DNA of 38,164 nucleotides. Origin: Elusimicrobia bacterium ADurb.Bin231 (GTDB lineage: Bacteria > Elusimicrobiota > UBA8919 > MWCF01). The translations under genes and the position numbers were made by a program. Below are positions 1-13,862 of the stretch, piece after piece (positions within the stretch are counted from its first letter, which is position 1; every line of letters starts with the position of its first letter). The stretch lies in assembly GCA_002069855.1 (NCBI GenBank), contig MWCF01000068.1:1-38164 (forward strand), given 5' to 3'. Under the pieces are notes generated by a model, which was given only the letters and a program-made list of their open reading frames with translations, did no database searches and was not told the DNA's origin.

Positions 1-45
1 AGACATCCTATAAAGAGTCAAGTAAAAAATAAAGGTCTTTGAAAA

Positions 46-1266
46 TCAAGAAGTAGAATTAACAAAAACCCTTGCTGGGTTGTACGGCTGACCGGATTTC
101 AACATAGAGAGCATCATATGAGCAAGTTTTTTAGCGACGCAGATAATCGCCTGCTTGTGGGACTTGCCCTGAGATACTTTTTTATGGTATAGCGTCCGCA
201 TTTCAGGATTATGTTTAAGGGAAGCAACGGCAGCCATATAGAGGTGCCAGCGCAGGTATTTTGGCCCGCGGTTGGACATTAGGTTATCCCGTTGAGATTC
301 GCCTGACTGATAAATTTTGGGGAAGAAACCGATAAGACCGGTGAATGCCTTAGCGTTAGCGAAGGATTTGCCATCGCGCCCGATAGCAGCAAGAACGGCA
401 GCGAGCGTTTTTTTACCGACACCGTCTATTGACAACAGGTTTTCGCCCGGGAAAGAGTCGTTGGGACCATTAGGGGATAAAATATCCTGAATTTGGGCAT
501 CAAGTTTCTGAATGTTATTTGAGAGCGATTGAATAAGCGAAAGGATCATTTTGAGATTTTCGCCGCGGGCAGTGTGCGCTTTACCGGAATAGCAGGAGTT
601 TTTGGCAGTATCAACAAGGCGCTGTAACTCGTCGCAGTTGAAATTGTTGCCCTGGATATGACGGACGAGTTTTTCGAGATGTTTTACTTTAACATTCGCC
701 AAGTGTTTAGCCGTAGGGAACTGCTGTAAGATATTCATAGAAGCGACCGCGAACGGATTTTTGACGGCTGTTTTGTGATATTCCGGGAAGACGAGATTCA
801 GAAGCGCCAATGACTGACGCTTGTAATTGAGCAGGTCTTTGATAAATTCGTAACGAAGTTTCACGAGTTCTCTGATTGTCAGAACGAGTTCATCCGGCAC
901 GAGGCAGTTGCCGTATTCGCCTGTGCGCAGGAGTTGAGCAATAACGAGCGCATCAATATCATCGGTTTTTGCTTTTTTACGCAATGCCTCCCGGAATTTG
1001 TTGGTGTAGAACGGGTTAAGAAGAACGACCTTAAAACCGTTAGATGTCAGGAACTCGTAGATATTTTCCCGGAAGTTGCCGGTTGCTTCCAGCCCGCAGA
1101 GAAGATTGGGAGCGGCAATCTGAAGTTTTTGAAAGCGTTCAAGCAGCGACTTGAAACCGTCGGAAGAATTGTCAAGGGAGAAAGCCGGCGCGACTTTTTC
1201 GCCTAAGTCCGAAACGAGCAGAAATTTATGCGACTTGTTTGCGACATCAATACCGAGATAAAACAT
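46..1266 (-). CDS. IS110-family transposase (DEDD/serine recombinase)
   Basis: This 406-residue protein is the recombinase of an IS110-type insertion sequence, which moves through a circular intermediate guided by a bridge RNA in characterised members. The N-terminal RuvC-like domain shows the DEDD set: Asp7 (GIDVA), Glu60 (GLEATG), and Asp102 and Asp105 (KTDDIDA). The C-terminal Transposase_20 domain carries an HhH-like segment (SIDGVGKKTLAAVL, about 278-291) and the QSGES motif with the likely nucleophile Ser320. Full length for the family. The start is supported by AAAGGAG about 9 bases upstream. No frameshift or stop interrupts it, so it may be active. Only 45 bases follow the stop before the window edge, so the right end of the element is at or just outside the edge. 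The long noncoding flank lies 5' of the gene, as in the IS110 (not IS1111) group. Confidence 0.95.
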   Translation of the reverse strand: MFYLGIDVANKSHKFLLVSDLGEKVAPAFSLDNSSDGFKSLLERFQKLQIAAPNLLCGLEATGNFRENIYEFLTSNGFKVVLLNPFYTNKFREALRKKAKTDDIDALVIAQLLRTGEYGNCLVPDELVLTIRELVKLRYEFIKDLLNYKRQSLALLNLVFPEYHKTAVKNPFAVASMNILQQFPTAKHLANVKVKHLEKLVRHIQGNNFNCDELQRLVDTAKNSCYSGKAHTARGENLKMILSLIQSLSNNIQKLDAQIQDILSPNGPNDSFPGENLLSIDGVGKKTLAAVLAAIGRDGKSFANAKAFTGLIGFFPKIYQSGESQRDNLMSNRGPKYLRWHLYMAAVASLKHNPEMRTLYHKKVSQGKSHKQAIICVAKKLAHMMLSMLKSGQPYNPARVFVNSTS

Positions 1267-1288
1267 AAAGGTACGCTCCTTTGATTAT

Positions 1289-1309
1289 GTCCTGAAACAA
1301 GTTCAGGAC
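1289..1309 (-). promoter_or_regulatory. Hairpin in the transposase 5' leader
   Basis: A perfect 8-bp inverted repeat (GTCCTGAA / TTCAGGAC) with a 5-base loop sits 22 bases upstream of the transposase start and just upstream of its ribosome binding site. It could separate the guide-RNA region from the transposase message or limit read-through translation. There is no T-tract on the transposase-sense side, so a classical terminator is not supported. The pairing is seen directly; the role is inference. Confidence 0.5.
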
Positions 1310-1361
1310 AGGTTTTTCAGCAGGTTCCATGAATGTTTAGCCAACATAGCCTGATTGATAA

Positions 1362-1386
1362 ATGGTAATCCCTGAAGGGACTCCAT
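1362..1386 (-). repeat. Conserved hairpin of the 3' bridge-RNA module (copy 1 of 2)
   Basis: ATGG pairs with CCAT and encloses an inner stem TCCC/GGGA with a TGAA loop. The outer frame ATGGTA...CTCCAT is shared exactly with 1442-1466, 80 bases away, while the inner bases differ. Confidence 0.6.
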
Positions 1387-1441
1387 AGCATCCTAAATAA
1401 ATGTTTCAGGCTAAACGACAGGAAGCAGTAGTCTTTTTCAA

Positions 1442-1466
1442 ATGGTAGCCGATAAATCGGCTCCAT
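1442..1466 (-). repeat. Conserved hairpin of the 5' bridge-RNA module (copy 2 of 2)
   Basis: Same outer frame as 1362-1386, but the inner stem is GCCGAT/ATCGGC. The same geometry with different paired bases suggests a structured RNA rather than a protein-binding DNA repeat. The 3' edge also forms a 12-base palindrome (CTCCATATGGAG, 1461-1472), so an alternative fold is possible. Confidence 0.6.
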
Positions 1467-1522
1467 ATGGAGGCACAAAAACTGTCTTTCCTGCTGAACT
1501 CCCAGATTGAATATCGGGGAAA

Positions 1523-1551
1523 TTGAAATATCGACTGTAAATTATTATACA
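1523..1551 (+). promoter_or_regulatory. Putative sigma70-type promoter for the TonB receptor operon
   Basis: TTGAAA (1523-1528) and TATACA (1546-1551) are separated by 17 bases, which predicts a start near 1558 and a leader of about 100 bases. On the opposite strand the same place holds TATAAT (1549-1544) facing the insertion sequence, so divergent promoters would overlap here. Lying at the edge of an IS, this promoter could have been altered or supplied by the insertion. Confidence 0.45.
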
Positions 1552-1613
1552 AATTTTCAAATGTTTTGCGATGATCGATGATGTAGCAACAAACTTTAGT
1601 TAATTCTGTTCGG

Positions 1614-1628
1614 ATGATATTTAATCAT
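1614..1628. promoter_or_regulatory. 15-bp inverted repeat, possible operator
   Basis: ATGAT-ATTTA-ATCAT is a perfect inverted repeat between the predicted promoter and the ribosome binding site of the TonB-receptor gene. It does not match the Fur consensus well. Function unknown; it may be chance in AT-rich DNA. Confidence 0.25.
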
Positions 1629-1655
1629 ACTGAACATTATATCAGGAGAAACAAT

Positions 1656-3689
1656 ATGAAAATAAATATAGTATTTTTATCGTTCGCATTTATGATATGT
1701 GCGGAAATATCGGCTGAAACTGGAAGTTATATAGGCAATTTGGGAGATCTTGGCGAGACAAGCGTGTATGTCGGTGTTCATAAAGAGTCGAAAAAGGAAA
1801 GTCCCGCTGTAGTGGTAAACGAAATATCCGGTGAGAAGTTAAAGAAGAGTGGCGTCCAGACAGTGGCAGATGCATTGGAAAGAGTGGCAGGAGTGGATAC
1901 CAGAAATTCCGGAAAAGGGCTGAATTCCATCAGTGTCCGCGGTTTTGATCAACAGTCCATGAAGGTGCTTATTGACGGTGTGCCTGCGTATGAATCGTAT
2001 TTCGGATTGGTTGATCTCAGTGTTATGCCGGTGGCGTCAATTGAGAAGATTGTTGTTTCAAAGGGCTCGTCTTCGATATTGTACGGTCCAAATACTATGG
2101 GAGGAGTGGTGAACATAATTACGAAAAAAGGCTCCGGAGCCCCTCAGACATCGTTAGTAACTTCATTCGGAGATTTCAATACATTCAATTATGGTTTGAA
2201 CCAAAGTGGAAAATTGGGAAAATTTAATTATAATGTAGGGTATAATAAACAAACTGCGGATGGCTGGGGATTGTCCAGAGATTTTGACAAAACCAACGTG
2301 AATACCGGAATTGCCACTGATTACAAAGAAGACGGCGGAAAAAGAGAAAATAGCGATTATATAAAACAATCCTTTGTCTGTAACATCGGTTATACTCCAG
2401 ATGAAACTTTGAAAACTAATTTATCCGTAAACTGGCTTAATCAGGAAAAGGGTTGTCCTATAAGTAATTTGATGGGCTCCGCGCATAAAGTTAAATTCAG
2501 TAATTGGTCGCAATGGCAGGCAAGCGTGGCTATGGAGAAAAATTTTAGTCCGTCGGCAGCGCTTAAAGGCCGCATTTTCTATATAAATCATGAGGATGAA
2601 CTTACAGTTGACACAATGACTACCGTGTCTATGGGCGGCCGGCCATATTTTGATAAATCCGTGTACAAGGATTATTCGTTCGGCGTAGAAAGTAACTTTT
2701 ATCTGAATATTCTGGAAGATAATCTTACAAAGATCGGGTTTACTTATCAGAAAGACAGTCACAATGGACAGGACTACAATGCGTGGATCTGGAAAAAGGT
2801 TGCCGGAGTATGGAATTCCACTATTACTCCGGGCTGGTCTGCGGAAAGCATTTCCGAGGCGGATACTTACAGTATAGGTTTGGAGAATTCTTTAATGTCG
2901 ATGGATGACAAATTAACTCTCAATTTCGGCTGCGGATACAACGGTTATGTGCCGCTGAAATCAGCAGGTGTTCCTCATCCGGATGATACATGGATTTTTA
3001 CTCCTCAAATCGGCGCAGACTATGAAGTGGCTGATAATACAACTTTGTACGGCTCCATAGGGAAGAAGGTAAGGTTTCCGAGAATGAAAGAGCTGTATAG
3101 CAAGATTGCAGGCGGCAATCCAGACATCGAAGCGGAACGGTCTATTTCTCAGGAATTAGGTATCCGTCAGGGAATCGGAGATGTTAAGATTTATTGCTCA
3201 TATTTTGATAATAATATCAGCAAAATGATATATAGTCAGAAAGATGCCAGTAAAAACACTTATTATGTCAATATAGGTAAGGCGCGTATTTACGGCGCGG
3301 AATCAGGTATCGAGGCGCCTCTGACTTCAAATTTGAGTATTTTAGGCGATTATACTTATTTGTATGCCTACGATAAAACAAACAGCCATGAAATAGCGCA
3401 GAAACCAAGACATAAATTTAATTTGGCTGTTGATTATTCGTTCGGTTTCGGTTTATCCGCGTATATGCAAGGGGTATATGTAGGGCAGCAAAAATTAGAT
3501 TCTCCGGCAAGAAATATATGCGAATATACTTTGTTTAATGCCAAGTTGTCGCAAAATTTATCTTCCGGCGAATCCGGTTCGCAACAGATTTTTATTTCTG
3601 TAAACAACTTATTTGACAAAGATTATGAGGAAGGTGACGGCCCTATGGCCGGCAGAAGTTTCCTTGCCGGTGTTGAATATGTTTTTTAG
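1656..3689 (+). CDS. TonB-dependent outer-membrane receptor
   Basis: A 677-residue TonB-dependent receptor for energy-driven import of a bulky ligand across the outer membrane. I chose ATG 1656 over the in-frame ATG 1614. It has AGGAG 8 bases upstream and begins at once with a signal peptide (MKINIVFLSFAFMICAEISA, cleavage near residue 20), whereas the earlier start would bury it. A plausible TonB box (TSVYVGVHK) follows. The plug domain shows the usual order: VADALERVAGVD, ISVRGFDQQSMKVLIDGVP, SSSILYGPNTMGGVVNIITKKG (split here across about residues 95-140). The rest is a 22-strand-type barrel ending in an aromatic residue (VEYVF). The size fits siderophore/cobalamin/metallophore receptors. 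It leads the cluster 1656-7926, and the adjacent ECF-like genes suggest they handle the same ligand in the inner membrane. The ligand cannot be named from sequence. Confidence 0.93.
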   Translation: MKINIVFLSFAFMICAEISAETGSYIGNLGDLGETSVYVGVHKESKKESPAVVVNEISGEKLKKSGVQTVADALERVAGVDTRNSGKGLNSISVRGFDQQSMKVLIDGVPAYESYFGLVDLSVMPVASIEKIVVSKGSSSILYGPNTMGGVVNIITKKGSGAPQTSLVTSFGDFNTFNYGLNQSGKLGKFNYNVGYNKQTADGWGLSRDFDKTNVNTGIATDYKEDGGKRENSDYIKQSFVCNIGYTPDETLKTNLSVNWLNQEKGCPISNLMGSAHKVKFSNWSQWQASVAMEKNFSPSAALKGRIFYINHEDELTVDTMTTVSMGGRPYFDKSVYKDYSFGVESNFYLNILEDNLTKIGFTYQKDSHNGQDYNAWIWKKVAGVWNSTITPGWSAESISEADTYSIGLENSLMSMDDKLTLNFGCGYNGYVPLKSAGVPHPDDTWIFTPQIGADYEVADNTTLYGSIGKKVRFPRMKELYSKIAGGNPDIEAERSISQELGIRQGIGDVKIYCSYFDNNISKMIYSQKDASKNTYYVNIGKARIYGAESGIEAPLTSNLSILGDYTYLYAYDKTNSHEIAQKPRHKFNLAVDYSFGFGLSAYMQGVYVGQQKLDSPARNICEYTLFNAKLSQNLSSGESGSQQIFISVNNLFDKDYEEGDGPMAGRSFLAGVEYVF

Positions 3690-13234: not shown

Positions 13235-13862
13235 AAAATGTCTCCTTTGAGTTTGAATATTCCCGTATGTCTTTTGGATAATCAAAATCCATCACTATAG
13301 AAGGATCGTTAACAGATATAAATTTTACTTTTTTTGGATATTTAACAAAGAATGCCCTTGCTCCGCCTTCTATCTTTTCAGTAACTATCTTCTTAAATAT
13401 TTCTTTTGGAAATATCGCGGGATGTCCCTTTCTGCGCCTGTAACTTGGAACATACATTTTGTTTTTATGCTTTTGCCAGGATTTTATTAAGGTTTTATAG
13501 GTCGACAGTTTTGTAAGAGGATGATCCACAGGAGTAAAAATTATAGCGCGGCATTCCTCTGGCAGCACTGAAATGGCTGTTTTTAACGATATAATCTGTT
13601 CGGCGTTGAAATTACGGTTTATAACAACGGTTATCTTATCCGCCAGCCCTTTTTTAACGAGAAAATTATTGACAATTTTGTTTTTATATCCAAGCACTAC
13701 AACGATATTATGTATGCCAGCATTTTCAAAATCGTCTATTATTTTTTCTATAAAAGTTGTTGAGCCGTTCAATTTAAGCAGTGCCTTTATCCTGCCCTGC
13801 ATCCGTCTTCCATTGCCTGCAGCCAAAATAATTCCAAAAATAGATGATGTGGTGGAAACCAT
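13206..13862 (-). CDS. MocA/MobA-like molybdopterin nucleotidyltransferase
   Basis: A 218-residue NTP-transferase. The nucleotide-binding loop is LAAGNGRRMQGRIKALL (13-29), with the distal Lys26 of the family. The metal/substrate motif is FTPVDHPL and the later GHPAIFP segment is typical of MocA, which attaches CMP to molybdopterin for xanthine dehydrogenase-family enzymes (MobA attaches GMP). Position next to xdhC and two molybdenum hydroxylases supports MocA over MobA. Ten bases separate it from the upstream dehydrogenase, and its 3' end overlaps xdhC. No gene for earlier steps of molybdopterin synthesis is in the window. GMP or CMP specificity cannot be decided by eye. Confidence 0.85.
   Translation of the reverse strand: MVSTTSSIFGIILAAGNGRRMQGRIKALLKLNGSTTFIEKIIDDFENAGIHNIVVVLGYKNKIVNNFLVKKGLADKITVVINRNFNAEQIISLKTAISVLPEECRAIIFTPVDHPLTKLSTYKTLIKSWQKHKNKMYVPSYRRRKGHPAIFPKEIFKKIVTEKIEGGARAFFVKYPKKVKFISVNDPSIVMDFDYPKDIREYSNSKETFYGKHLRKNS

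What the first reader, a model, noticed from the sequence alone, without database searches (positions are those of the whole stretch)
1335..1518. A probable bridge RNA with two programmable-looking modules upstream of the IS110 recombinase
Between the recombinase and the left end, the sequence folds as a 5' hairpin and then two modules. Each is closed by its own stem and capped by a hairpin with an identical outer frame (ATGGTA...CTCCAT) but different, compensated inner stems. Order, size (about 180 nt), strand and position match the bridge RNA of IS110-group elements such as IS621, where one loop reads the target and the other the donor. The internal duplication of the cap hairpin suggests the two loops arose by duplication.
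Basis: partly seen in the sequence, partly recalled or inferred. Interest (0 to 1): 0.75.

Follow-up and report, generated by a model that had tools for sequence, protein, structure and literature searches.

The report
Bridge RNA aimed at ribosome-binding sites
A jumping DNA element in an uncultured bacterium carries what looks like a genuine 'bridge RNA' guide, and in this branch of the family the guide resembles the ribosome's own gene-start-finding sequence, so the elements land right next to gene starts.

Summary
In detail: window 1335-1499 (minus strand) contains two stem-closed modules with look-alike caps, upstream of an IS110 recombinase (49-1266, minus). A covariance model built only from seven homologues finds the window at 124.8 bits, E 1e-27; covariation in those homologues exceeds all shuffles. 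Other copies in the same genome fix the ends (core CT at 1-2 and 1644-1645). All four guide-to-DNA pairings expected of a bridge RNA are present and compensated across families: left donor 16/16, right donor 19/19, left and right target far above mismatched pairings. The excised circle would rebuild a TTGACT-17-TATAAT promoter. So the bridge-RNA reading is right. In nearly every insertion examined the left end abuts AGGAGG-like sequence and a start codon, and the left target guide resembles the 16S rRNA anti-Shine-Dalgarno tail. The window's own guide fits its target only 7 of 9, and fits two sister copies poorly. The "5' hairpin" is the weakest part, the RNA is probably longer than 180 nt, and duplication of the loops is not supported. 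New variant of a known kind; no RNA or activity was measured.

The parts
1..1645 (-). IS110-group element; CT core at both ends (right end 1-2, left end 1644-1645); contig starts exactly at the right-end core
   Evidence: other left ends at contig ends C10 and C24 and other right ends at contig starts C97 and C117 of the same genome diverge from the window exactly at CT
49..1266 (-). DEDD recombinase, 406 aa
   Evidence: PF01548 4.7e-32, PF02371 7.3e-22, NF033542 IS110 RNA-guided transposase 233 bits; phmmer to IS621 8wt6 E 1e-23; D7, E60, D102, D105 and S321 invariant in 12 relatives
3..21 (-). right end: -35-like TTGACT (16-21) and left-donor sequence AGGATGT just before the core
1636..1641 (-). 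-10 TATAAT just inside the left end; the circle junction gives TTGACT-17-TATAAT
   Evidence: spacing 17 (14 of 16) or 18 (2 of 16) across the 16 elements tested
1608..1635 (-). left-end hairpin just after the -10, candidate true 5' stem-loop
   Evidence: present in most but not all homologues; start of the RNA not measured
   Evidence: counterpart in L002 by eye only
1419..1493 (-). target-binding module: stem 1482-1493/1419-1431
   Evidence: compensatory changes, covariance-model hit
1468..1478 (-). left target guide UUGUGCCUCCA (anti-Shine-Dalgarno-like GCCUCC)
   Evidence: 7 of 9 with the window's own left flank; family-wide coupling 0/10000
1442..1466 (-). cap hairpin of target module with bulged A
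1433..1439 (-). right target guide GAAAAAG
   Evidence: 5/6 with the C117 flank, 4/6 with the C97 flank; family-wide at most 1 of 20000 permutations
1335..1416 (-). donor-binding module: stem 1409-1416/1335-1342
1389..1394 (-). left donor guide AGGAUG
   Evidence: same as right-end AGGATG; 16/16 elements, six sequence variants
1362..1386 (-). cap hairpin of donor module
1351..1359 (-). right donor guide AU[CAA]UCAG pairing CTGATAT discontiguously
   Evidence: 19/19 elements match the four core-proximal bases, six variants
1316..1324 (-). CCUGCUGAA, complementary to UUCAGCAGG (1490-1498): closing or alternative helix overlapping the target-module stem
   Evidence: cognate pairing -313 vs -224 (sd 12.5) kcal/mol over 19 elements, 0/10000
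1644..1658 (+). insertion target: Shine-Dalgarno AGGAGA and start codon ATG (1656) of the TonB-dependent-receptor-like gene 1656-3689
   Evidence: direct reading

Best explanation
It is the bridge RNA of an IS110-group insertion sequence. The first module reads the target and the second reads the element's own joined ends, so the recombinase can bring the two together and exchange strands at a CT core. Excision joins right end to left end, rebuilding a promoter that would transcribe the RNA. In this branch the left target guide carries a CUCC(U)-type sequence like the 3' tail of 16S rRNA, so the element enters the Shine-Dalgarno sequence just upstream of start codons, with the core forming the first AG of AGGAGG, and leaves AGGAGG and the start codon intact on the gene side. 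Shown here by computation: structure conservation, ends, guide/DNA complementarity and its compensation, site context. Inferred: transcription, recombinase binding, catalysis, and that anti-Shine-Dalgarno guidance is the cause of the site preference.
For: Homologue-only covariance model finds the window at 124.8 bits, E 1.1e-27, 26 of 28 model pairs kept; covariation: 26 cells changed on both sides vs 11.9 shuffled, 0/500. Ends fixed by other copies. The empty site between C97 and C24 with one CT restores an rnfC-like frame whose TGA stop overlaps the ATG of an rnfD-like frame (gene names from reading the translations). Left donor guide 16/16 exact over six variants, null mean 3.5, max 12. Right donor guide 19/19, null mean 4.1, max 13 in 20000 draws. 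Left target guide: 141-151 matches of 207 in 23 families vs 110-114 (sd 5) permuted, 0/10000, and 78-84 vs about 50 in the part outside CTCC. Right target guide 87/108 vs about 72.6, at most 1/20000. Site context: all 27 sites score SD >= 4 of 6; 21 of 27 also have a start codon in range with an ORF of at least 60 aa or open; with the stricter SD >= 5 it is 17 of 27 against 0.2% of random positions. NCBI-annotated start codons lie right beside the left end in Enterococcus plasmid copies.
Against: No RNA or recombination data. The window's own left guide matches its target only 7 of 9, its last base opposes the core T with A, and it fits the C24 and C10 insertions poorly (3 of 9 each). The window's own right flank is off the contig. 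The homologue model does not match IS621's RNA, so kinship with IS621's RNA rests on layout, not sequence. Guide registers were set by reading, then tested with one fixed register. The sites come from few lineages and are not fully independent.
Confidence: 0.93

Rival explanations
1. A bridge RNA, but the Shine-Dalgarno preference arises from the recombinase or from survival bias (only insertions outside coding sequence persist), not from the guide.
For: Insertions just before genes are less harmful than insertions inside them; in the window group CUCC of the guide can also pair with GGAG of the adjacent cap, a structural reason for its presence.
Against: The guide's variable bases outside CTCC follow each family's own target: L011 9/9; L092 TGCCCCCT on both sides at a site that is not a typical Shine-Dalgarno; viral guide variants CCACCUCC and CCAUCUCC each with matching sites. 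Survival bias does not predict a position fixed to the base within AG|GAGG.
Confidence: 0.08
2. A structured 5' leader that controls recombinase translation (attenuator) rather than a guide RNA.
For: It lies directly upstream of the recombinase; the extra helix 1490-1498/1316-1324 and the hairpin 1288-1310 sit before its ribosome-binding site.
Against: Does not predict complementarity of the loops to element ends and insertion sites in compensated form. It could be an additional role.
Confidence: 0.03
3. Chance fold in the intergenic region.
For: AT-rich intergenic DNA with several inverted repeats; the plus strand also folds better than shuffles.
Against: Covariance-model hit E 1e-27 from homologues alone and covariation beyond shuffles.
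Confidence: 0.005

Closest known systems
IS621 bridge RNA and recombinase (IS110 group; Durrant et al. 2024 PMC11208160, Hiraizumi et al. 2024 PMC11208158)
   Same: RNA upstream of the recombinase in the left end; target loop then donor loop; left guides pair the bottom strand, right guides the top strand; split right-donor pairing; CT core; promoter rebuilt at the circle junction; a bulged A in the 3' strand of both caps
   Different: Recombinase 406 aa, 26-29% identical in two pieces, in a separate branch of the tree; RNA not matched by the homologue model; about 100 nt more leader if transcribed from the junction promoter; 68 nt between donor module and recombinase, whereas in the E. coli copy the IS621 RNA runs up to the start codon; left donor guide appears to stop two bases short of the core; extra helix to downstream sequence; target is a Shine-Dalgarno antisense, not REP
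seekRNA of IS1111/IS110 elements (Siddiquee et al. 2024 PMC11187229)
   Same: RNA from the non-coding region that selects the target; upstream of the recombinase in the IS110 type
   Different: IS1111 type lies downstream of the recombinase; a text search of the paper showed no Shine-Dalgarno or ribosome-binding-site target
IS900 and relatives of mycobacteria (from memory, not retrieved here)
   Same: recalled target CATGN4-6CNCCTT, i.e. between start codon and ribosome-binding site, in an IS110-family element
   Different: no guide RNA was known when this was described; not compared here

Membership tests
IS110 family element | DEDD RuvC-like domain plus Transposase_20 domain with conserved serine | tested here: met
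IS110 family element | no target duplication, short core shared by both ends | tested here: met
   CT core; empty site restored with a single CT
IS110 group (not IS1111) | long non-coding end upstream of the recombinase | tested here: met
   left end 379 bases, right end 48 bases
IS110-group bridge RNA | two internal-loop modules with conserved structure | tested here: met
IS110-group bridge RNA | 5' stem-loop | tested here: inconclusive
   two candidates, 1608-1635 and 1499-1522; start of RNA unknown
IS110-group bridge RNA | first loop complementary to target on both sides | tested here: met
   met for the family; in the window itself 7/9 on the left, right flank only inferred
IS110-group bridge RNA | second loop complementary to donor on both sides | tested here: met
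IS110-group bridge RNA | promoter rebuilt across the circle junction | tested here: met
   (sequence only)
IS110-group bridge RNA | transcribed, bound by the recombinase, needed for recombination | not testable with these tools
   needs experiment
IS621 bridge RNA as a sequence family | matched by the same covariance model | tested here: not met
   model R1 gives no hit in an IS621 locus; no Rfam family matches the window

The most novel reading that the evidence does not exclude
A branch of IS110 elements spread over Elusimicrobiota, Omnitrophota, Nitrospirota, Bacillota and viral contigs has bridge RNAs whose target guide mimics the anti-Shine-Dalgarno tail of 16S rRNA, giving them a landing site that exists before many genes of nearly any bacterium and that leaves the gene's translation start intact; an extra helix to sequence beyond the donor loop may switch the RNA between guide and recombinase leader.
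Probability: 0.7. Interest if true: 0.65.

Novelty: new variant of a known kind. Interest (0 to 1): 0.52.

Why it matters
It extends bridge RNAs to a deep branch with a naturally different guide layout, and ties an old observation (some IS110 elements sit at ribosome-binding sites) to a testable cause: an RNA guide that copies a motif nearly universal in bacteria. That would explain broad host range and low damage to the host, and it gives many natural guide/target pairs on which the pairing rules can be tested.

Tried and rejected
Rfam gave nothing. RNAalifold on MAFFT alignments mis-folds the donor module, so a structure read from the window fold and the homologues was named and counted instead. 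A weak model hit at 13413-13484 (15 bits, E 0.04) was taken as chance. The first run of the closing-helix test used wrong 3' segments for the window, L002 and L057 and was repeated. The same test on IS621 was cut at the wrong place and is discarded; that RNA ends at the start codon, so there is no downstream segment to test. An uninterrupted version of the window's own target was sought through its receptor gene in 150 genomes of the phylum; none found. Joining C117 to the window gives a clean ferredoxin-like stop, AAGGAGA and ATG, but C10 is an alternative partner, so this pairing is only plausible. Literature searches found no report of an anti-Shine-Dalgarno bridge RNA guide, but the library lacks most subscription papers. 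The phage and plasmid collections held no near copy of the viral element L058. Relatives L009, L013, L018, L078, L080, L088 and L089 have less clear ends and were left out of the pairing tests. Internal duplication of the loops was rejected as unneeded.

Full report
What was claimed and whether it is there. They are there at the stated place. The minus strand 1330-1540 folds at -65.2 kcal/mol, 4.3 standard deviations below dinucleotide shuffles. The recombinase at 49-1266 carries both IS110 domains, passes the NCBIfam IS110 RNA-guided transposase cut-off, and the only solved relatives found are IS621 and ISCro4.

Homology and covariation. Seven homologues (L002-L008, 47-80% identical recombinases) have the same arrangement. 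A covariance model built without the window hits the window at 1346-1497 minus with 124.8 bits, E 1.1e-27, 26 of 28 model pairs kept. In the homologues 86% of cells pair, 26 cells changed on both sides against 11.9 in shuffles, covariation score 0.442 against 0.254, 0/500, and sliding the partners destroys it. Caveat: seven related sequences, and the outer donor stem was not counted.

Ends of the element. The genome holds further left ends (contigs C10, C24) and right ends (C97, C117). They diverge from the window exactly at CT, giving core CT at 1-2 and 1644-1645. Joining the flanks of C97 and C24 with one CT gives a reading frame whose translation looks like the end of RnfC, with a TGA overlapping the ATG of an RnfD-like frame: a single core and no duplication, as expected of IS110.

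Donor guides. Six bases of the right end (just before the T that precedes the core) are the same as six bases in the 5' side of the second loop in 16 of 16 elements, across six variants (AGGATG, AGGACG, AGTTGG, AGCTGG, AGTTAG, AGTTTG); shuffled pairings give 3.5 on average, at most 12. On the other side, CTNN at the left end is matched by the 3' side of the loop in 19 of 19 elements over six variants, shuffled mean 4.1, at most 13. In the window, and by eye in L002-L005, the pairing has the split AU[3]NNAG form described for IS621. Related elements share variants by descent, so the shuffle counts overstate independence, but six variants changing together on both sides is not explained by descent alone.

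Target guides. With one fixed register, the left target guide matches its own target in 141-151 of 207 positions over 23 families against 110-114 in permuted pairings, 0/10000; restricted to the six positions outside the common CTCC it is 78-84 against about 50, 0/10000. The right target guide scores 87/108 against about 72.6, at most 1/20000. For the window itself the left match is 7 of 9, and the two other left flanks in the genome match poorly (3 of 9 each), so the target claim for this copy rests on the family as much as on itself.

What the target is. Read outward, the left flanks begin AGGAGG, AGGAGA, AGGGAG and the like, followed at 5-16 bases by a start codon. All 27 sites score at least 4 of 6 against AGGAGG. 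In 21 of 27 a start codon in range opens a frame of at least 60 codons or running off the locus; with at least 5 of 6 it is 17 of 27, against 0.2% of random positions. The six failures are short frames (L011, L012, L060, L061, L077) and one without a start codon in range (L074); L012 has an ATG slightly beyond the range. Several sites are near-duplicates (for example L059 and L069), so the effective number is smaller. Independent NCBI annotation puts start codons directly beside the left end in L086, L087 and L090. Exceptions: L011 looks like an insertion in a hairpin, and L092 sits at ATGCCCCCT, matching its guide but not a typical Shine-Dalgarno site. The window copy lies in AG|GAGAAACAATATG of the gene at 1656. 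The guides (for example CCACCUCCU, AUACCUCCU) resemble the 16S rRNA tail CACCUCCUUA (established knowledge). That the guide causes the preference is an inference supported by the compensation, not shown.

Expression. Joining right and left ends gives TTGACT-17-TATAAT in the window and near-consensus promoters with 17 or 18 base spacing in all 16 elements tested, as described for IS621 (PMC11208160). A second TATAAT lies at 1544-1549. The RNA would then be about 290 or 200 nt, longer than the 177 nt of IS621.

An extra helix. UUCAGCAGG (1490-1498) can pair with CCUGCUGAA (1316-1324) beyond the donor module. Over 19 elements the cognate duplex energy sums to -313 kcal/mol against -224 (sd 12.5) for non-cognate pairings, 0/10000, though in several elements taken alone it is no better than shuffles. 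It overlaps the target-module stem, so it is either a closing helix with a shifted junction or an alternative state. In the E. coli copy, IS621's RNA runs up to the recombinase start codon, so it has no equivalent downstream segment.

Placement. The recombinase belongs to a 384-406 aa branch separate from the about 326 aa IS621 branch (deep forks weakly supported). The homologue model does not match IS621's RNA. It is wired like IS621's bridge RNA and would work like it; by sequence it is a different RNA family. Duplication of the loops is not supported: the shared cap frame is lost in more distant members.

Verdict. Interpretation supported: a bridge RNA at 0.93, with the anti-Shine-Dalgarno guide as the interesting part (0.7). 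Site preference for ribosome-binding regions in IS900 is recalled from memory and lowers novelty; the library held no paper that links it to a guide RNA.

Noticed in passing
window 1490-1498 with 1316-1324 (minus): Conserved complementarity between the start of the target module and sequence after the donor module, overlapping the target stem; possible switch.
   Followed up: partly
window 1288-1310 (minus): Perfect 9-pair hairpin TGTCCTGAACTTGTTTCAGGACA just before the recombinase ribosome-binding site; L002 has a different but pairing hairpin there.
   Followed up: no
window 1608-1635 (minus): Hairpin starting right after the left-end TATAAT, seen in most relatives; a transcript starting 7 bases after the -10 would lack part of its first arm.
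   Followed up: partly
L034 (C97) and L037 (C24) of the same genome: Another copy of the element sits between frames that read as rnfC and rnfD, separating the operon.
   Followed up: partly
L036 (C10 end): A diverged left end (short deletion, 93% identity) beside AGAGGGGGGGG, a target that fits the guide poorly.
   Followed up: no
L060, L061 left flanks: Sites CCATCTCCCT match guide CCAUCUCCC perfectly but one base out of register, suggesting a flexible linker or a shifted core.
   Followed up: no
L004 start, L063, L064, C10, C24, C97, C117: Contigs break at the ends of these elements, as expected for multicopy insertion sequences collapsed in assembly.
   Followed up: no
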